Below, one piece after another: positions 52,992 through 58,860 of a DNA stretch of 64,000 nt; position 1 is the stretch's first letter; every line of letters starts with the position of its first letter. The stretch spans positions 62,001 to 126,000 of IMG/VR virus record IMGVR_UViG_3300035670_000018; one strand, 5' to 3'. A model generated the notes under the pieces. That model was not told the origin of the DNA. It made no database searches and saw only the letters and a list, made by a program, of their open reading frames with translations. The position numbers and the translations under genes were made by a program. This DNA is from a virus.

Positions 52992-53074
52992 GGCCACGTA
53001 ACCGATGGCGGCTTCTACCCGCTTAACCGTAACTGGAGTTGAAAATGGGAGTTCGAATCTCTCCGTGGTCGCCA
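52992..53074 (+). tRNA. Atypical tRNA-Arg (TCT), no D-arm
   Basis: Acceptor GGCCACG/CGTGGTC plus G and encoded CCA, T-arm GGGAG-TTCGAAT-CTCTC. Only 8 bases separate the acceptor from a stem GGCGG/CCGCT whose loop CTTCTAC gives anticodon TCT. Instead of a D-arm there are 24 bases between anticodon arm and T-arm, including GTAACTGGAG. Partner in oddity: tRNA at 56811. Confidence 0.5.
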
Positions 53075-53096
53075 TTTCAAATTATGGAGAAAGTGA

Positions 53097-53363
53097 ATGT
53101 CTGCACCGAAGACCAAGACCAAGTACACTTCTAAGGGTGAGCGTGAAGCGAACCGTAGCTTGTCAAAGGCTATCAAGCGTGATCGCACAGTCATTGAGAA
53201 GTCTCAGATCAAGCAGAAGGCATGGTTGAAGGGACAGAACCCTTGGATCGTCGTGCCGAATGAGAATACAGCCGATACTAAGGCACGGTTTGTTCGCGTT
53301 CGTGCTGAGACTGAGTGGGGTGATCCGCGCAAGGGCTTCATGTTCGGCGCGATGAAGGACTAA
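53097..53363 (+). CDS. Small basic protein, function unknown
   Basis: 88 residues, GTG or ATG start near 53097 with TGGAGAAAG upstream. SAPKTKTKYTSKGEREANRSLSKAIKRDRTVIEKSQIKQKAWLKGQNPWIVVPNENTADTKARFVRVRAETEWGDP. Strongly basic N-terminal half. Lies between the first two tRNAs. No family recognised. Confidence 0.5.
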   Translation: MSAPKTKTKYTSKGEREANRSLSKAIKRDRTVIEKSQIKQKAWLKGQNPWIVVPNENTADTKARFVRVRAETEWGDPRKGFMFGAMKD

Positions 53364-53370
53364 GATTAAC

Positions 53371-53447
53371 GCCCCCTTAGCCCAGCGGTAGGAGGCACCG
53401 GACTTAAAATCCGTACAGGGACAGTTCGAATCTGTCAGGGGGTACCA
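53371..53447 (+). tRNA. tRNA-Leu (TAA)
   Basis: Acceptor GCCCCCT/AGGGGGT, anticodon stem CCGGA/TCCGT with loop CTTAAAA, T-arm ACAG-TTCGAAT-CTGT, CCA encoded. Short variable loop rather than the long arm usual for Leu. Confidence 0.85.
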
Positions 53448-53451
53448 AATT

Positions 53452-53528
53452 TGCATCTGTAGCACAGCGGTTAGTGCTATCGGCTCATAACCGATTGGTC
53501 CTTGGTTCGAATCCAAGCGGATGCACCA
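53452..53528 (+). tRNA. tRNA-Met/Ile2 (CAT)
   Basis: Acceptor TGCATCT/GGATGCA, anticodon stem ATCGG/CCGAT with loop CTCATAA, T-arm CTTGG-TTCGAAT-CCAAG, CCA encoded. Elongator Met or lysidine-modified Ile2 cannot be separated here. Confidence 0.88.
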
Positions 53529-53533
53529 AATAA

Positions 53534-53623
53534 CGGAGTGAGACTAAGAGTCAGAGAGGACTTATAAACCTTTTGCAGCCGATTACTGCCTTTGAGGTGG
53601 AGCGTTACCACCCACTCCGACCA
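53534..53623 (+). tRNA. Degenerate class II tRNA-like gene (loop reads TAT, Ile)
   Basis: Acceptor CGGAGTG/CACTCCG plus ACCA; D-like hairpin GACT-AAG-AGTC without GG; anticodon-like AGAGG/CCTTT with CTTATAA inside; variable arm GCAG/CTGC; T-like stem GGTGG/CCACC with loop AGCGTTA instead of TTCRANY. tRNA-Thr(GGT) at 59589 has a related loop, ATCGTTA, so it may still work. Confidence 0.4.
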
Positions 53624-53628
53624 ATATT

Positions 53629-53705
53629 GCCCTCGTAGCCCAACTGGCAGAGGCAGCAGATTCAAATCCTGCTCAGTGTAAGTTCGACTCTTACCGAGGG
53701 CACCA
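53629..53705 (+). tRNA. tRNA-Leu (CAA)
   Basis: Acceptor GCCCTCG/CGAGGGC, D-arm GCCC...GGC, anticodon loop TTCAAAT in stem GCAGA/CCTGC with one A-C mismatch, T-arm TAAG-TTCGACT-CTTA, CCA encoded. Confidence 0.75.
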
Positions 53706-53714
53706 AAAAAAAAG

Positions 53715-53755
53715 TTGACAAAAACATAAAATCCAGCTAGGATGTTGTATAAATA
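53715..53755 (+). promoter_or_regulatory. Early promoter followed by late box, before leader peptide
   Basis: TTGACA (53715-53720), 17 bases, TAGGAT (53738-53743); five bases later TATAAATA (53748-53755). Both would transcrib the 28-codon leader frame and the terminator at 53892. Confidence 0.7.
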
Positions 53756-53779
53756 GAATACAGTTTAAGAAAGACGGAA

Positions 53780-53866
53780 ATGAAACCCATTCTACCTCCA
53801 TTTACAATTAATCAAGAAACATGCCAGCCATCATGGGCAGGTGTGATGAGGGGTTCTATGTATTAA
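53780..53866 (+). CDS. Leader peptide of a putative attenuator
   Basis: 28 codons (MKPILPPFTINQETCQPSWAG...). ACGGAA precedes the ATG. The frame covers GGGGTTCT (53850-53857), which can pair with the 5' arm of the downstream terminator. The short length, placement between promoter and terminator and overlap with a competing stem fit a regulatory leader. Contains Trp19, Cys15 and three Pro. Confidence 0.5.
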   Translation: MKPILPPFTINQETCQPSWAGVMRGSMY

Positions 53867-53891
53867 GTCTTAGTACAGACTTAGTTTCTTA

Positions 53892-53929
53892 GAACCCCGA
53901 AGCCAAAAGTTTCGGGGTTCTTCGTTTTT
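53892..53929 (+). terminator. Terminator/attenuator after the leader peptide
   Basis: GAACCCCGAA (53892-53901) and TTCGGGGTTC (53911-53920) form a perfect 10-bp stem, followed by TTCGTTTTT. AGAACCCC (53891-53898) can instead pair with GGGGTTCT at 53850-53857 inside the leader frame. Confidence 0.8.
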
Positions 53930-53932
53930 ATA

Positions 53933-54018
53933 GTTGCGTCCAGTGCATAGCAGATATGCGAAAAAAGAATAAGAAAAGACTTGAAATTGGCTGCGACAAG
54001 CACTATATTAGATATGTA
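53933..54018 (+). promoter_or_regulatory. Palindrome promoter cassette, copy C
   Basis: TTGCGTCCAGTGCATAGC...TATGCG (53934-53960) contains GCATA-gcaga-TATGC, the exact reverse complement of the 15-mer in copy B. Then TTGAAA (53981-53986), 17 bases, TATATT (54004-54009) and the shared AGATATGTAA block. The direct repeats of copies A and B are missing. Confidence 0.6.
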
Positions 54019-54288
54019 AGAGAGAAAAGAGTTTCCCAGCCGCGCGGGACAAGATGCGGTCGCTGTTTAACATTGTTAAGTTCCTATGAGTTACCCTTGC
54101 TCACTCAAGGGCGCACTGAGTAGCGAAATATCCAGTGAGGGACTGTGACTCAGCACAGCCTCACATTCTATCTCTTCAGATATGCACCGGGCATTGTAGC
54201 TACTGCCTAGTGTGGCACAGTCGCGCTGCTTCGGTGGCGTTCAAGATGAACTGTTCGATTCAGTTGGTGCATATCTGAAGTGATAGAA
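54019..54288 (+). ncRNA. Large structured RNA candidate downstream of promoter C
   Basis: No protein frame is supported between 53930 and the tRNA at 54294. Hairpins: CCTTG/CAAGG, and GTGAGG-CTGTG/CACAG-CCTCAC (54135-54164). Then a 22-bp near-perfect stem, 54166-54188 with 54266-54288 (one T-T mismatch), encloses a UUCG hairpin CGCTGC/GTGGCG and a T-arm-like hairpin AACTG-TTCGATT-CAGTT next to the stem. The last part resembles a tRNA with a very long acceptor stem and no CCA. Confidence 0.55.
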
Positions 54289-54293
54289 TACAT

Positions 54294-54370
54294 TCCTCTC
54301 AAGCCAACTAGGTGGAGGCAACTGACTGTTAATCAGTGTACGACAGGTTCGAATCCTGTGGGGGGAGCCA
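54294..54370 (+). tRNA. tRNA-Asn (GTT)
   Basis: Acceptor TCCTCTC/GGGGGGA with G-T pairs, anticodon stem ACTGA/TCAGT with loop CTGTTAA, T-arm ACAGG-TTCGAAT-CCTGT, CCA encoded. Starts 6 bases after the large structured RNA. Confidence 0.88.
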
Positions 54371-54376
54371 ATTCAT

Positions 54377-54463
54377 GGACCAGTCGCCTAGTGGCTATGG
54401 CAGCAGACTCTTAATCTGTCGTGAGAAATCACATCGTGGGTTCGAGTCCCACTTGGTCCTCCA
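54377..54463 (+). tRNA. tRNA-Lys (CTT) with long variable arm
   Basis: Acceptor GGACCAG/TTGGTCC, anticodon stem GCAGA/TCTGT with loop CTCTTAA, variable hairpin GTGA-GAAA-TCAC, T-arm GTGGG-TTCGAGT-CCCAC, CCA encoded. A class II variable arm is unusual for Lys. Confidence 0.8.
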
Positions 54464-54468
54464 ATCAT

Positions 54469-54542
54469 GGCCTATTAGTGAATGGATATCACACCGCTCT
54501 GTCTAAGCGGAGAAGCGAGTTTGAGCCTCGCATAGGTCGCCA
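54469..54542 (+). tRNA. tRNA-Asp (GTC)
   Basis: Acceptor GGCCTAT/ATAGGTC, anticodon stem CCGCT/AGCGG with loop CTGTCTA, T-arm GCGAG-TTTGAGC-CTCGC, CCA encoded. Followed by a 71-base spacer with hairpins ACGGC/GCCGT and GGGT/ACCC. Confidence 0.88.
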
Positions 54543-54613
54543 TTTAGTACGCCTGTCCCGCTTTGGGAAGTTGGGTAGGGTTGACGGCACCCTCGCAGTA
54601 CGAAAGCCGTTAT

Positions 54614-54691
54614 CTGAGTGTACGAGAGTCTGGTTACATCCCATAGATTTGGAATCTATGAACGCAGGTTCGAATCCTGCCACTCAGACCA
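54614..54691 (+). tRNA. tRNA-Pro (TGG)
   Basis: Acceptor CTGAGTG/CACTCAG, anticodon stem ATAGA/TCTAT with loop TTTGGAA, T-arm GCAGG-TTCGAAT-CCTGC, CCA encoded. Confidence 0.9.
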
Positions 54692-54696
54692 ATTAT

Positions 54697-54770
54697 ATCA
54701 GTGTAGTGTAACGGTAGCACGGCAGCCTCCAAAACTGCTTGTCAGGGTTCGAATCCTTGCACTGGTGCCA
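54697..54770 (+). tRNA. tRNA-Trp (CCA)
   Basis: Acceptor ATCAGTG/CACTGGT, anticodon stem GCAGC/ACTGC (one mismatch) with loop CTCCAAA, T-arm CAGGG-TTCGAAT-CCTTG, CCA encoded. Confidence 0.85.
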
Positions 54771-54773
54771 GTC

Positions 54774-54884
54774 AGAAAGAGCGGTAGTCGGAGTGCGAAT
54801 CCGATGAGAACATGCCTGTGATCGCACACAGGCATTAAGTATCCTCACCATAGACTTCGGTCAACATAGAGGAACGCTCTTTCT
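54774..54884 (+). ncRNA. Multi-hairpin RNA closed by a 10-bp stem
   Basis: AGAAAGAGCG (54774-54783) pairs with CGCTCTTTCT (54875-54884). Inside: TCGGA-gtgcgaa-TCCGA, ATGCCTGTG-atcgca-CACAGGCAT (9 bp, perfect), and CCTC/GAGG enclosing GAC-TTCG-GTC. It is tRNA-sized and branched but has no T-loop, anticodon or CCA. It starts 4 bases after tRNA-Trp and ends just before a promoter. Confidence 0.65.
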
Positions 54885-54886
54885 AC

Positions 54887-54915
54887 TTGACTTTACGTGA
54901 TGCCTCGTCTATAAT
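54887..54915 (+). promoter_or_regulatory. Promoter TTGACT-N17-TATAAT
   Basis: TTGACT (54887-54892), 17 bases, TATAAT (54910-54915), 24 bases before the gene at 54940. It restarts transcription within the cluster, directly after the multi-hairpin RNA. Confidence 0.85.
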
Positions 54916-54939
54916 AAGACAACAATCAACGAGGTAACT

Positions 54940-55155
54940 ATGGCAAAGATGACGATTAAGAAAGTGATGGAATTACAAGATCATTTCATCAAAGCTGGTA
55001 TTATGAAAGACCCTAAGTCTTATACCGCAGATGAATTGAAGTATCTTAATCCTGCTATTCCATCTGACTTCATTGATGATTATGTTGATGTTCGTGATGG
55101 TAAGAAGAAAGAAAGCGACTGGCAGCGTATTCCGCTGAAGATCGAAGATTTGTAA
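54940..55155 (+). CDS. Small protein, function unknown
   Basis: 71 residues after GAGGTAA. AKMTIKKVMELQDHFIKAGIMKDPKSYTADELKYLNPAIPSDFIDDYVDVRDGKKKESDWQRIPLKIEDL. Helical with a polar C-terminus. Its promoter also serves the tRNAs behind it. No family recognised. Confidence 0.5.
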   Translation: MAKMTIKKVMELQDHFIKAGIMKDPKSYTADELKYLNPAIPSDFIDDYVDVRDGKKKESDWQRIPLKIEDL

Positions 55156-55161
55156 TACAAT

Positions 55162-55236
55162 GGGCTTGTAGTATAATGGGTATTATCTCCCGCTTGCACC
55201 GGGAAGAACAGGGTTCGATTCCCTGCTTGTCCACCA
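55162..55236 (+). tRNA. tRNA-Ala (TGC)
   Basis: Anticodon stem TCCCG/CGGGA with loop CTTGCAC, T-arm CAGGG-TTCGATT-CCCTG, CCA encoded. The acceptor GGGCTTG/CTTGTCC has two T-T mismatches; the Ala-specific G3-U70 pair is present. Confidence 0.82.
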
Positions 55237-55244
55237 AGTTTAAC

Positions 55245-55318
55245 GCCTCTATAGTTCAATGGCAGAACGCCTGTTTTGTAATCAGGATATCAGGGTTCGA
55301 TTCCTTGTCGAGGCACCA
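55245..55318 (+). tRNA. tRNA-Thr (TGT)
   Basis: Acceptor GCCTCTA/TCGAGGC (one mismatch), anticodon stem CCTGT/TCAGG with loop TTTGTAA, T-arm CAGGG-TTCGATT-CCTTG, CCA encoded. Confidence 0.85.
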
Positions 55319-55322
55319 GTTT

Positions 55323-55437
55323 AGCGTTGTAGGAGCAGAAGTGACCTTGTTGGGATGGTCTGCTGTATGCGGCTCACAGGCGAGTTGAGGGGTTTGATCA
55401 CCCCAAGTCTGGCGAGGGTTCAATTCCCTCCAACGCT
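55323..55437 (+). ncRNA. 115-nt tRNA-like RNA without CCA
   Basis: Acceptor-like AGCGTTG/CAACGCT (7 bp, perfect) and a true T-arm GAGGG-TTCAATT-CCCTC. Between them are 84 bases with AGCAGA/TCTGCT and GGGGT-ttgatc-ACCCC hairpins and no standard anticodon arm. CTGTATG could present GTA, but with a weak stem. No CCA follows. It may be an aberrant tRNA or a tRNA-mimic. Confidence 0.55.
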
Positions 55438-55524
55438 AATCTAATTTGATCTGGCTACGTAGCAGCAATGTGCGTCATGAATGTCAGACAGTCAACCAAA
55501 TAACTGTGCGGTTGACACCAGTTT

Positions 55525-55610
55525 GGGTGAGCGGCAACGACGGTGAGTTGCGGCGGACTGTAAATCCCCTGTCTATGACTTAGAAGGTTCGAATCCTTTC
55601 TCACCCACCA
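55525..55610 (+). tRNA. tRNA-Tyr (GTA)
   Basis: Acceptor GGGTGAG/CTCACCC, loop CTGTAAA in stem GCGGA/TCCCC (one mismatch), class II variable region, T-arm GAAGG-TTCGAAT-CCTTT, CCA encoded. The 84-base spacer before it holds GTCAACC/GGTTGAC (55491-55497, 55510-55516). Confidence 0.85.
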
Positions 55611-55617
55611 AATTGAT

Positions 55618-55698
55618 TTAGCTACTCACACAGTATGGTTACGCCATATCTTAGAGTCACGAATGCTAAACAACCAGACTTAATACTGTGCTGTCTGG
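55618..55698 (+). ncRNA. Structured spacer RNA with crossing stems
   Basis: TTAGC (55618-55622)/GCTAA (55665-55669); TATGG-ttacg-CCATA (55634-55648); CACAGTAT (55629-55636)/ATACTGTG (55683-55690); CCAGAC (55674-55679)/GTCTGG (55693-55698). Some stems cross, so alternative folds or a pseudoknot are needed. No frame or tRNA is present. Confidence 0.4.
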
Positions 55699-55708
55699 AT
55701 TATTTTAT

Positions 55709-55794
55709 ACTACCTTATCCAAGTGGTTGAAGGAAGGCGGCCGATAACCGTCTGGCGAAAGCCCGCGTTTGTTCGAATCAAACAGGTAGTACCA
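55709..55794 (+). tRNA. Class II tRNA, loop CCGATAA (Ile GAT or Ser CGA)
   Basis: Acceptor ACTACCT/AGGTAGT, Ser/Leu-like D-arm with GTGGTTGAAGGA, stem GGCGG/CCGTC, variable hairpin GGC-GAAA-GCC, T-arm GTTTG-TTCGAAT-CAAAC, CCA encoded. By position the anticodon is GAT, but base 33 is C, not T; reading one base earlier gives CGA (Ser), which suits the class II body. Confidence 0.65.
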
Positions 55795-55796
55795 TT

Positions 55797-55871
55797 TCCT
55801 GTGCTTGCAATCTCTCAGTTAAAAGCTGTTGCAAGATTAAGTGTTATGTCTAATATGACATAGACACAGGA
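55797..55871 (+). ncRNA. Two-arm structured RNA with 7-bp closing stem
   Basis: TCCTGTG (55797-55803) pairs with CACAGGA (55865-55871). Inside: CTTGCAA/TTGCAAG (55804-55810, 55829-55835) with CAG/CTG, and TATGTC-taatat-GACATA (55845-55862). The size and 7-bp closing stem recall a tRNA, but no tRNA loops are present. It could also act as a terminator for the convergent minus-strand gene. Confidence 0.5.
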
Positions 55872-55872
55872 T

Positions 55873-56157
55873 CTATTCTCTTGAAGGATAAAGACCTTCA
55901 ACCACCATATGTGGTACAAGTTCGTCATCATGCCATTCGCGTCTGACTTTCTTGCCATAGTCTGGTCCAGAATCAACGAATGGTCTTAAGTCTGGTAGTG
56001 CGAAAGTGTGAATACCATCGCCACCCCAACGGGTGCCCAGTAGAGAGAACAAAGGTTCATGATGTTGAATTTCTAATATCTGCCCGCGACATACCACAGT
56101 GTCTCTTGTGTTCCAAGTAAAAGGCAGATAAACAACTTGACTAATATAAGCTTCCAT
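55873..56157 (-). CDS. Tail-collar-domain protein (minus strand)
   Basis: 94 residues from the third ATG at 56157 (minus), which has ATGGAG 7 bases upstream. EAYISQVVYLPFTWNTRDTVVCRGQILEIQHHEPLFSLLGTRWGGDGIHTFALPDLRPFV is the phage tail collar domain (CxGQxLxIxxxxxLFSLLGxxYGGDGxxTFxLPDLR). Tail collar domains occur in phage fibres and in bacterial MdpB-like proteins. It is the only convincing minus-strand gene here and has its own late promoter. Short and stand-alone, it may be a virion accessory protein. Confidence 0.85.
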   Translation of the reverse strand: MEAYISQVVYLPFTWNTRDTVVCRGQILEIQHHEPLFSLLGTRWGGDGIHTFALPDLRPFVDSGPDYGKKVRREWHDDELVPHMVVEGLYPSRE

Positions 56158-56186
56158 GGTATACTCCATTATATGAGTTGACATGG

Positions 56187-56193
56187 TATTTAG
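56187..56193 (-). promoter_or_regulatory. Late promoter CTAAATA on minus strand
   Basis: TATTTAG on the + strand reads CTAAATA on the minus strand, 30 bases upstream of the tail-collar start. It lies 4 bases from the 5' end of the + strand tRNA-Gln. Confidence 0.65.
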
Positions 56194-56197
56194 TTAT

Positions 56198-56271
56198 TGG
56201 GAGATCATCTAAAGGTAGGATAGCGGTCTTTGAAACCGCCGATCTTGGTTCGATTCCAAGTCTCCCAGCCA
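56198..56271 (+). tRNA. tRNA-Gln (TTG)
   Basis: Acceptor TGGGAGA/TCTCCCA, anticodon stem GCGGT/ACCGC with loop CTTTGAA, T-arm CTTGG-TTCGATT-CCAAG, CCA encoded. Confidence 0.92.
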
Positions 56272-56323
56272 ATTCGTGCTTGCATAGCATATAGTCAATA
56301 GATGTAGCCGCACTACAATAGAC

Positions 56324-56407
56324 GGACTGGTTACCGTAGTGGCGAACGGCGCTGACTTTTAATCAGCTATGCAAACACCGTGGGTTCGAGTCCCACCCAG
56401 TCCTCCA
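56324..56407 (+). tRNA. tRNA-Lys (TTT)
   Basis: Acceptor GGACTGG/CCAGTCC, anticodon stem GCTGA/TCAGC with loop CTTTTAA, enlarged variable loop TATGCAAACACC, T-arm GTGGG-TTCGAGT-CCCAC, CCA encoded. Like tRNA-Lys(CTT) it has an extended variable region. Confidence 0.88.
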
Positions 56408-56412
56408 ATTAT

Positions 56413-56487
56413 GGCGCATTAGTTTAGTGGTCAGAATACTGGGCTTTCAATCCGGGGAGAAGGGTTCAATTCCCTTATGCGCTGCCA
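56413..56487 (+). tRNA. tRNA-Glu (TTC)
   Basis: Acceptor GGCGCAT/ATGCGCT, anticodon stem CTGGG/TCCGG with loop CTTTCAA, T-arm AAGGG-TTCAATT-CCCTT, CCA encoded. Confidence 0.9.
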
Positions 56488-56492
56488 AATAT

Positions 56493-56570
56493 TGCGGGAT
56501 AGAGCAGTCAGGTCAGCTTGCTAGGTTCATATCCTAGAGGTCGCAGGTTCGAATCCTGCTCCCGCTTCCA
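56493..56570 (+). tRNA. Initiator-like tRNA-fMet (CAT)
   Basis: T1-T72 mismatch at the acceptor end (TGCGGGA/TCCCGCT), D-stem GAGC/GCTT with the A11-T24 pair typical of bacterial initiators, anticodon stem CTAGG/CCTAG with loop TTCATAT, T-arm GCAGG-TTCGAAT-CCTGC, CCA encoded. The three G-C pairs usual in initiator anticodon stems are not complete. Confidence 0.75.
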
Positions 56571-56571
56571 T

Positions 56572-56646
56572 GCTGCATTAGTCTAGTGGTTAAGACGCAG
56601 GTCTGTGAAACCTGTTACGGCGGTTCGATTCCTCCATGCAGTACCA
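56572..56646 (+). tRNA. tRNA-His (GTG)
   Basis: Acceptor GCTGCAT/ATGCAGT, anticodon stem CAGGT/ACCTG with loop CTGTGAA, T-arm GGCGG-TTCGATT-CCTCC, CCA encoded. Confidence 0.85.
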
Positions 56647-56651
56647 TTTAT

Positions 56652-56725
56652 TGCCCGGTCGTCTAACGGTAGGACGCCAGATTCTGACTCTGGCTATCGT
56701 GGTTCGAATCCATGCTGGGCAGCCA
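56652..56725 (+). tRNA. tRNA-Gln (CTG)
   Basis: Acceptor TGCCCGG/CTGGGCA, anticodon stem CCAGA/TCTGG with loop TTCTGAC, T-arm GTGG-TTCGAAT-CCAT, CCA encoded. Confidence 0.9.
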
Positions 56726-56729
56726 ATAT

Positions 56730-56804
56730 GGGGTAATGGTGAAATGGGAACACCGTGGTCTGCAAAACCATTATGAGTAGGTTCGATTCCTACTTACCCC
56801 TCCA
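56730..56804 (+). tRNA. tRNA-Cys (GCA)
   Basis: Acceptor GGGGTAA/TTACCCC, anticodon stem GTGGT/ACCAT with loop CTGCAAA, T-arm GTAGG-TTCGATT-CCTAC, CCA encoded. Confidence 0.9.
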
Positions 56805-56810
56805 AACTAT

Positions 56811-56904
56811 GCATCCGTATCCCCCTTGGCTACGAACCAAGAGTAAGGTAACTGGAGATGGTCAGAGATGACTAATGCAGGTTCGAATCCTGTCGGATGC
56901 TCCA
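56811..56904 (+). tRNA. Atypical tRNA-Arg (ACG), no D-arm, long insert
   Basis: Acceptor GCATCCG/CGGATGC plus T and CCA, T-arm GCAGG-TTCGAAT-CCTGT. Only TATCCCC separates the acceptor from CTTGG-CTACGAA-CCAAG, the standard Arg(ACG) arm. About 35 bases between anticodon arm and T-arm include GGTAACTGGAG and hairpin GTCA-GAGA-TGAC. The TAACTGGAG string is shared with the other odd tRNA-Arg at 52992. Confidence 0.6.
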
Positions 56905-58649: not shown

Positions 58650-58860
58650 GAATGCTAACTCCGACGGGAGTTGGCCGAGTGCAAGGAAATGACTGCTCAC
58701 CAGGAGCGGTTAACTTGGCTAGATGGTGTGGTGCCCGTGCGCGACTGACGAGAGTCAGAGGCGTATCGTCTCCGACCAAGAGAATCTAGGCTGACACGTG
58801 GCAGATACAAGGTATCTTGGTCGTGTCTTGTGGGTGTACCCCAGTCCCACCTCACCTTAT
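58650..58860 (+). ncRNA. About 200-base structured region between tRNAs
   Basis: No supported frame. Hairpins: AACTCC-gacg-GGAGTT, CTGCT/AGCGG, CTGAC-gaga-GTCAG, GACACG/CGTGTC enclosing AGATAC-aag-GTATCT, and GTGGG/CCCAC. TTGGCCGAGTGCAAGG resembles a Ser-type D-arm and CTCCGACCA resembles a tRNA end, so part may be a decayed tRNA-Ser. A late-type AATAAATA (58643-58650) precedes it. Confidence 0.45.

What the first reader, a model, noticed from the sequence alone, without database searches (positions are those of the whole stretch)
52992..56904. Two D-arm-deficient tRNA-Arg genes sharing a TAACTGGAG insert
tRNA-Arg(TCT) at 52992 and tRNA-Arg(ACG) at 56811 both have a good acceptor, anticodon arm, T-arm and CCA, but only 7-8 bases where the D-arm should be and 24-35 extra bases between anticodon arm and T-arm. 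Both inserts contain GTAACTGGAG. This could be a displaced D-arm, an unknown intron-like piece, or a new tRNA architecture. Both are Arg isoacceptors, which makes chance less likely.
Basis: seen in the sequence. Interest (0 to 1): 0.85.

Follow-up and report, generated by a model that had tools for sequence, protein, structure and literature searches.

The report
Phage arginine tRNAs with rearranged D-loop
The two odd genes are real arginine tRNAs of a previously unrecognised build, found in hundreds of phage sequences and missed by the usual tRNA finders, in which the D-loop lies after the anticodon arm instead of before it, so the molecule is predicted to fold from three arms, not the textbook four-armed cloverleaf.

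Summary
Window 52992-53074 (anticodon TCT) and 56811-56904 (ACG) have intact acceptor, anticodon and T arms plus CCA, no D-arm before the anticodon arm, and a D-loop-like UAACUGGA after it. They are the only Arg tRNAs in the 167-kb virus record. I collected 207 distinct relatives from IMG/VR and isolate phages; all carry Arg anticodons. Comparative analysis gives the fold. Two or three spacer bases just before the anticodon stem pair with the bases just before UAACUGGA (11-L1 206/206 and 12-L2 205/206 Watson-Crick, several pair types, above every phylogeny-aware null). D-loop base 15 covaries with base 48 (A-U 190, G-C 11, G-G 5) like the Levitt pair of ordinary tRNAs. So this is neither an intron nor a D-armless tRNA: the D-stem/D-loop is rebuilt with a different strand order, making a three-way junction. 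ARAGORN misses 310 of 313 copies. phiCbK, reported as the one phage of its group lacking an Arg tRNA, carries one. Expression, charging and the 3D fold are inferred. I found no description of this architecture in the open-access papers searched.

The parts
52992..53074 (+). rearranged tRNA-Arg(UCU), type II (8-nt spacer)
   Evidence: sequence; model R1 55.5 bits with this gene not in the training set; relatives
52999..53006 (+). 5' spacer U8 A9 A10 C10a C11 G12 A13 U26; C11-G12 is the 5' strand of the D-helix, and U8-C10a can pair with GUUG 53038-53041
   Evidence: covariation across 206 members
53007..53023 (+). anticodon arm, loop CUUCUAC, anticodon UCU
53028..53029 (+). L2-L1 (CG), 3' strand of the D-helix, pairing with G12 and C11
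53030..53037 (+). displaced D-loop UAACUGGA (A14, A15, G18, G19, A20)
53038..53041 (+). GUUG, second helix with U8-A9-A10-C10a (type II only)
   Evidence: 10-M2 44/50 and 10a-M1 45/50 Watson-Crick
53046..53046 (+). U48, predicted Levitt partner of A15
   Evidence: 15-48 covariation
53047..53063 (+). T-arm GGGAG-UUCGAAU-CUCUC
56811..56904 (+). rearranged tRNA-Arg(ACG), type I (7-nt spacer) with an extra hairpin
   Evidence: model R1 72.5 bits with this gene not in the training set
56818..56824 (+). 5' spacer U8 A9 U10 C11 C12 C13 C26; C11-C12 is the 5' strand of the D-helix
56825..56841 (+). anticodon arm, loop CUACGAA, anticodon ACG
56847..56848 (+). L2-L1 (GG), 3' strand of the D-helix, pairing with C12 and C11
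56849..56856 (+). displaced D-loop UAACUGGA
56859..56874 (+). optional hairpin UGGUCA-GAGA-UGACUA at the variable-region position
   Evidence: fold; long post-D-loop segments (18-21 nt) also occur in about 18 type-I relatives
56876..56876 (+). U48, predicted Levitt partner of A15
56877..56893 (+). T-arm GCAGG-UUCGAAU-CCUGU

Best explanation
These are functional phage tRNA-Arg genes with a rewired core. Order along the chain: acceptor strand, U8-A9-N10, two or three D-helix bases, one base, anticodon arm, 3-4 bases, the complementary D-helix bases, D-loop UAACUGGA, short variable segment, T-arm, acceptor strand, CCA. The D-helix therefore extends the anticodon stem as one irregular hairpin, and the D-loop is the strand joining that hairpin to the T-arm. 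The result is a three-way junction, not the four-way cloverleaf. The D-loop is still delivered to the elbow, where U8-A14, 15-48 and G18G19 with the T-loop can form as in ordinary tRNAs, and A20 is kept for arginyl-tRNA synthetase. It most likely works as a normal elongator tRNA-Arg, charged by the host enzyme and decoding the phage's Arg codons. Shown here: gene conservation, Arg exclusivity, D-helix covariation, 15-48 covariation. Inferred: expression, maturation, 3D fold, charging, and why phages prefer this build.
For: All 207 distinct well-formed members carry Arg anticodons (ACG 98, UCU 78, UCG 20, CCU 7, GCG 3, CCG 1); the other 6 of 213 geometry matches look like misread ordinary tRNAs or noise. 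In the three scans that did not specify an anticodon, all unique members (22, 65 and 10) are also Arg. D-helix: 11-L1 206/206 and 12-L2 205/206 Watson-Crick, no G-U, four pair types each in type I; both exceed every one of 200 tree-based null alignments (scores 250 and 300, largest null 121) and rank with acceptor and anticodon stem pairs. 15-48: A-U 190, G-C 11, G-G 5, G-U 1, A-C 0; 39/39 paired in alignment A2, where slid controls of the whole structure collapse. U8A9 207/207; base 20 is A in 310 of 313. Second helix in type II: UAAC/GUUG, UAGC/GCUG, UAGU/ACUG, UAAA/UUUG, UAGA/UCUG, UAAU/AUUG. Genes lie a median 61 nt from an ordinary tRNA on the same strand. They replace the ordinary isoacceptor: loci with variant UCU have ordinary UCU in 2 of 33, loci without it in 42 of 138, p=0.003. 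The phage's two commonest Arg codons, CGU and AGA, are the ones these anticodons serve.
Against: No RNA data: transcription, CCA processing, modification and charging are untested. Over all column pairs the 15-48 and 10-M2 signals alone are only borderline (about 0.2 expected in the null); they are strong only as pre-stated hypotheses. The third D-helix pair forms in only about 37% of members, so the D-helix is often 2 bp. RNAfold does not fold the UCU gene better than shuffles (z 0.07) and RNAalifold did not add the D-helix unprompted, as one would expect for a 2-bp helix held by tertiary contacts. Relatives were collected partly with Arg-anticodon patterns, though the unbiased scans agree.
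Confidence: 0.87

Rival explanations
1. The insert is an intron or removable piece, and the mature tRNA lacks it and is D-armless.
For: It sits as an insertion between anticodon arm and T-arm, and its length varies from about 17 to 35 nt.
Against: The insert covaries with mature positions 11, 12, 10 and 48 and carries the D-loop consensus needed in the mature tRNA. Its length variation is mostly in the variable segment 3' of the D-loop.
Confidence: 0.03
2. A truly D-armless tRNA (as in animal mitochondria) with an unrelated long variable region.
For: No D-arm in the usual place; RNAalifold shows only the acceptor, anticodon and T helices.
Against: UAACUGGA is conserved as a D-loop with G18G19A20, the 15-48 pair covaries, and a D-like helix covaries in 205-206 of 206 members.
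Confidence: 0.04
3. A tRNA-like decoy or regulatory RNA, for example bait for a host tRNA-cutting defence or for ArgRS, not used in decoding.
For: Phage tRNAs can counter tRNA-targeting defences (PMC10264068, PMC11555353, listed). An altered core could escape or absorb a nuclease.
Against: All six Arg anticodons occur, CCA is encoded in 185 of 213 matches, and the variant substitutes for the ordinary isoacceptor, as expected of a decoding tRNA. Altered nuclease resistance and decoding are compatible.
Confidence: 0.06
4. Degenerate pseudogenes or assembly artefacts.
For: Missed by ARAGORN in 310 of 313 cases.
Against: Full pairing with compensatory changes in hundreds of contigs and in finished isolate genomes.
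Confidence: 0.005

Closest known systems
Canonical bacterial tRNA-Arg (class I cloverleaf)
   Same: Acceptor, anticodon and T arms, CCA, U8, A9, A14, 15-48 pair, G18G19, A20, Arg anticodons; same genomic setting in phage tRNA clusters.
   Different: The D-helix 3' strand and the D-loop come after the anticodon arm, so a three-way junction replaces the four-way cloverleaf; the D-helix continues the anticodon stem with the pairing order reversed.
D-armless mitochondrial tRNAs (animal tRNA-Ser(AGY), nematode and mite tRNAs)
   Same: No D-arm in the usual position; only three helices in simple folding.
   Different: Those drop or replace the D-loop; here the D-loop and its elbow contacts are kept, displaced to the 3' side. 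Those are mitochondrial, these are phage.
Circularly permuted or intron-containing tRNA genes (red algae, archaea)
   Same: Gene order differs from the textbook tRNA.
   Different: There the mature tRNA regains canonical strand order after processing; here the covariation requires the new order in the mature molecule.
Allo-tRNAs and other bacterial tRNAs with odd stem lengths
   Same: Bacterial or phage tRNAs missed or mis-scored by standard tools.
   Different: They keep the four-arm strand order; here the strand order itself changes.

Membership tests
tRNA (functional class) | 7-bp acceptor stem and CCA end | tested here: met
   CCA encoded in 185 of 213 matches; all acceptor pairs covary
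tRNA (functional class) | 5-bp anticodon stem, 7-nt loop with U33 and purine 37 | tested here: met
   stem pairs covary; U33 and purine 37 were required by the search, so they are not independent evidence
tRNA (functional class) | T-arm with TTCRANN loop | tested here: met
   T-stem covaries; the loop was part of the search pattern
Canonical cloverleaf tRNA | D-arm hairpin between acceptor strand and anticodon arm | tested here: not met
   only 7-8 nt (9 in one case) between them in 207 of 207 members
Canonical cloverleaf tRNA | tertiary 15-48 (Levitt) pair | tested here: met
   A-U 190, G-C 11, G-G 5, G-U 1; by covariation only
tRNA-Arg | Arg anticodon | tested here: met
   207 of 207; all unique members in anticodon-blind scans
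tRNA-Arg | A20 in the D-loop as ArgRS identity element | tested here: met
   A in 310 of 313 without requiring it in the final descriptor; the identity role is from general knowledge
tRNA-Arg | aminoacylation by ArgRS | not testable with these tools
   needs biochemistry
Intron-containing tRNA | insert absent from the mature RNA | tested here: inconclusive
   insert-exon covariation argues against it; RNA sequencing is needed
D-armless tRNA | no D-loop or D-stem contribution | tested here: not met
   displaced D-loop and covarying D-helix

The most novel reading that the evidence does not exclude
A widespread, topologically new tRNA fold: a working three-way-junction tRNA-Arg in which the D-loop is supplied from the 3' side of the anticodon arm. 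It would have evolved and spread in phages, possibly because it keeps ArgRS recognition while escaping host nucleases or modification enzymes that read the normal D-arm.
Probability: 0.8. Interest if true: 0.95.

Novelty: new variant of a known kind. Interest (0 to 1): 0.9.

Why it matters
The four-arm strand order of tRNA is treated as nearly universal outside reduced mitochondrial tRNAs. Here hundreds of phage sequences, including isolates infecting Caulobacter, Xanthomonas, Stenotrophomonas, Pseudomonas and Microbacterium, appear to encode a tRNA that reaches the same tertiary core by another chain path. It would show which contacts are essential and that the chain path is not. Standard finders miss it, so phage tRNA inventories undercount Arg, as with phiCbK. 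It also gives a clean test of why phages carry tRNAs: does the altered core evade tRNA-targeting defences while the host ArgRS still accepts it?

Tried and rejected
1) Local hairpin around the D-loop (AAC...GUU in the UCU gene, hinted at by RNAfold): not conserved; in type II, L1 is G in 50 of 50 while M1 is mostly G. 2) Canonical fold in another register: most members have only about 4-9 nt between UAACUGGA and the T-arm, with no room for a second anticodon arm. 3) Intron: see rivals. 4) BLAST with the whole cluster found only ordinary tRNA similarity in unrelated phages. 5) First extraction script wrongly filtered position 36 and lost the UCU members; corrected. 6) MAFFT on mixed 7- and 8-nt spacers misaligned the anticodon stems, so the covariance model used type I only. 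7) Bacterial genomes: the ACG pattern hit 4 loci in the 84,980-species GTDB collection, three in Bradyrhizobium tRNA arrays and one in a phage-like MAG contig; among 120 genomes of that genus and 399 of its phylum only the query genome matched. The larger searches scored few candidates per genome. 8) Ten paper searches gave no description; most subscription journals are not covered.
Full report
WHAT IS THERE. The window is bases 62001-126000 of a 167,363-base IMG/VR virus record. Its tRNA cluster runs from about 53 to 61 kb of the window. ARAGORN tRNAs in the window, covering every amino acid except Arg, and none elsewhere in the record. The two genes of the finding fill that gap: anticodon UCU at 52992-53074 and ACG at 56811-56904. 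The phage's commonest Arg codons are CGU (15.9 per 1000) and AGA (14.6 per 1000), the codons these anticodons serve. The Rfam tRNA model sees them only marginally, at 32.0 and 27.6 bits.

THE FAMILY. A pattern holding only GTAACTGGAG and the T-loop, with no anticodon, was run over IMG/VR. Nearly all of the 40 hits show the same layout: acceptor strand, T-A plus 5-6 nt, anticodon arm, about 6-8 nt, TAACTGGA, a short segment, T-arm, acceptor strand, CCA. Further scans and isolate phages gave 207 distinct members, all with Arg anticodons: ACG 98, UCU 78, UCG 20, CCU 7, GCG 3, CCG 1. In the three anticodon-blind scans taken alone, every unique member is Arg.

THE FOLD. I aligned members by segments and computed covariation for all column pairs with no structure assumed, then compared with 200 null alignments evolved on the FastTree tree. 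Apart from the acceptor, anticodon and T stems and the anticodon itself (34-36), only two pairs stand clear of every null: 12-L2 (score 300) and 11-L1 (250; largest null 121). Positions 11 and 12 lie in the spacer before the anticodon arm; L1 and L2 are the bases directly before UAACUGGA, after the anticodon arm. In 206 members 11-L1 is Watson-Crick in 206 and 12-L2 in 205, with C-G, G-C, A-U and U-A all seen in type I. A third pair, 13-L3, forms in about 37%. On the tool-made alignment A2 the same two pairs are 39/39 with 10 and 9 double changes, and sliding the partners by one base drops whole-structure pairing from 96% to 36-40%.

THE TERTIARY SIGNATURE. The third base of UAACUGGA (position 15) covaries with the last base before the T-stem (position 48): A-U 190, G-C 11, G-G 5, G-U 1 and never A-C. 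This is the pattern of the Levitt pair in ordinary tRNAs (general knowledge). As one of 2,926 pairs its score is borderline, but it was a specific expectation. U8 and A9 are present in 207 of 207. The base after GG is A in 310 of 313, matching A20, an ArgRS identity element (general knowledge). These contacts need the 'insert' in the mature RNA, which argues against an intron.

TWO SUBTYPES. Type I has a 7-nt spacer (156 members; the window ACG gene). Type II has an 8-nt spacer (50 members; the window UCU gene), where U8-A9-N10-N10a also pairs with the four bases after the D-loop: UAAC/GUUG, UAGC/GCUG, UAGU/ACUG, UAAA/UUUG, UAGA/UCUG, UAAU/AUUG. About 18 type I members, including the window ACG gene, carry a longer segment of 18-21 nt after the D-loop; in the window gene it folds as a hairpin.

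HOW IT LIKELY WORKS. Inference: the D-helix stacks on the anticodon stem as in ordinary tRNA, but its 5' strand runs towards the anticodon instead of away from it. The D-loop is the return strand on the way to the T-arm. That makes a three-way junction with the same elbow contacts and a simpler chain path. I expect an L-shaped, ArgRS-charged elongator tRNA. Substitution data agree: loci with a variant UCU gene have an ordinary UCU gene in 2 of 33 cases, loci without it in 42 of 138 (p=0.003); for ACG 5 of 138 against 5 of 33 (p=0.02). The loci are partial contigs, so this is supportive only.

DISTRIBUTION. A model built from 39 type I sequences (R1), with neither window gene in training, scores the window genes 72.5 and 55.5 bits against at most 28.5 for ordinary tRNAs. 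It finds members in phages phiCbK, CcrColossus, Brevundimonas Bajun, Xanthomonas X1 and XacN1, Stenotrophomonas DLP6, Pseudomonas HHBS10_2, Vibrio D260, Ochrobactrum OC, Mesorhizobium Cp1R7A-A1 and Microbacterium Zooman; three of these (XacN1, Cp1R7A-A1, Zooman) were in the training set. Nearly all are unannotated there; Bajun's record calls one simply tRNA-Arg. Gill et al. 2012 (PMC3556154) state that phiCbK is the only phage of its group to lack an Arg tRNA; it has a type II member with anticodon ACG at L255:2495-2574. In bacteria the ACG form is almost absent: four hits in the GTDB collection, three in Bradyrhizobium tRNA arrays, and no further genome among 120 of that genus or 399 of its phylum.

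NOVELTY AND LIMITS. Ten searches of the open-access literature gave no description of such a tRNA. The function is a known kind (tRNA-Arg); the architecture is, to my knowledge, without precedent outside reduced mitochondrial tRNAs, which are built differently. No RNA-level evidence was available, so expression, modification, charging and 3D structure remain to be shown. Resistance to tRNA-targeting defences is a reasonable guess at why phages keep this form, and nothing more.

Noticed in passing
window 58657-58858: manA RNA motif (RF01745, 61.6 bits) inside the tRNA cluster.
   Followed up: no
window 55322-55440: A 119-nt RNA with tRNA-like acceptor pairing (AGCGTTG/CAACGCT) and a good T-arm (GAGGG-TTCAATT-CCCTC) but a long unusual middle with several hairpins and no CCA; no match in the phage collection.
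   Followed up: partly
window 53533-53622: tRNA-like element: CGGAGTG/CACTCCG acceptor plus ACCA, four short hairpins, and a T-arm position without a T-loop sequence; no match in the phage collection.
   Followed up: partly
window 54020-54292 and 54772-54892: Two strongly folded non-coding stretches between tRNA genes; the second has a 10-bp closing stem (AGAAAGAGCG/CGCTCTTTCT) and a T-arm-like hairpin near its 5' end.
   Followed up: no
L255:2586-2670 (phiCbK): Unannotated ordinary-order tRNA-Arg(CCG) with an enlarged D-loop, just downstream of the rearranged tRNA-Arg; seen by eye, possibly relevant to how the rearrangement arose.
   Followed up: no
L403, L404, L405: Bradyrhizobium tRNA arrays with 17-22 tRNA genes in 8 kb that carry the rearranged tRNA-Arg, suggesting phage-derived or mobile arrays.
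   Followed up: partly
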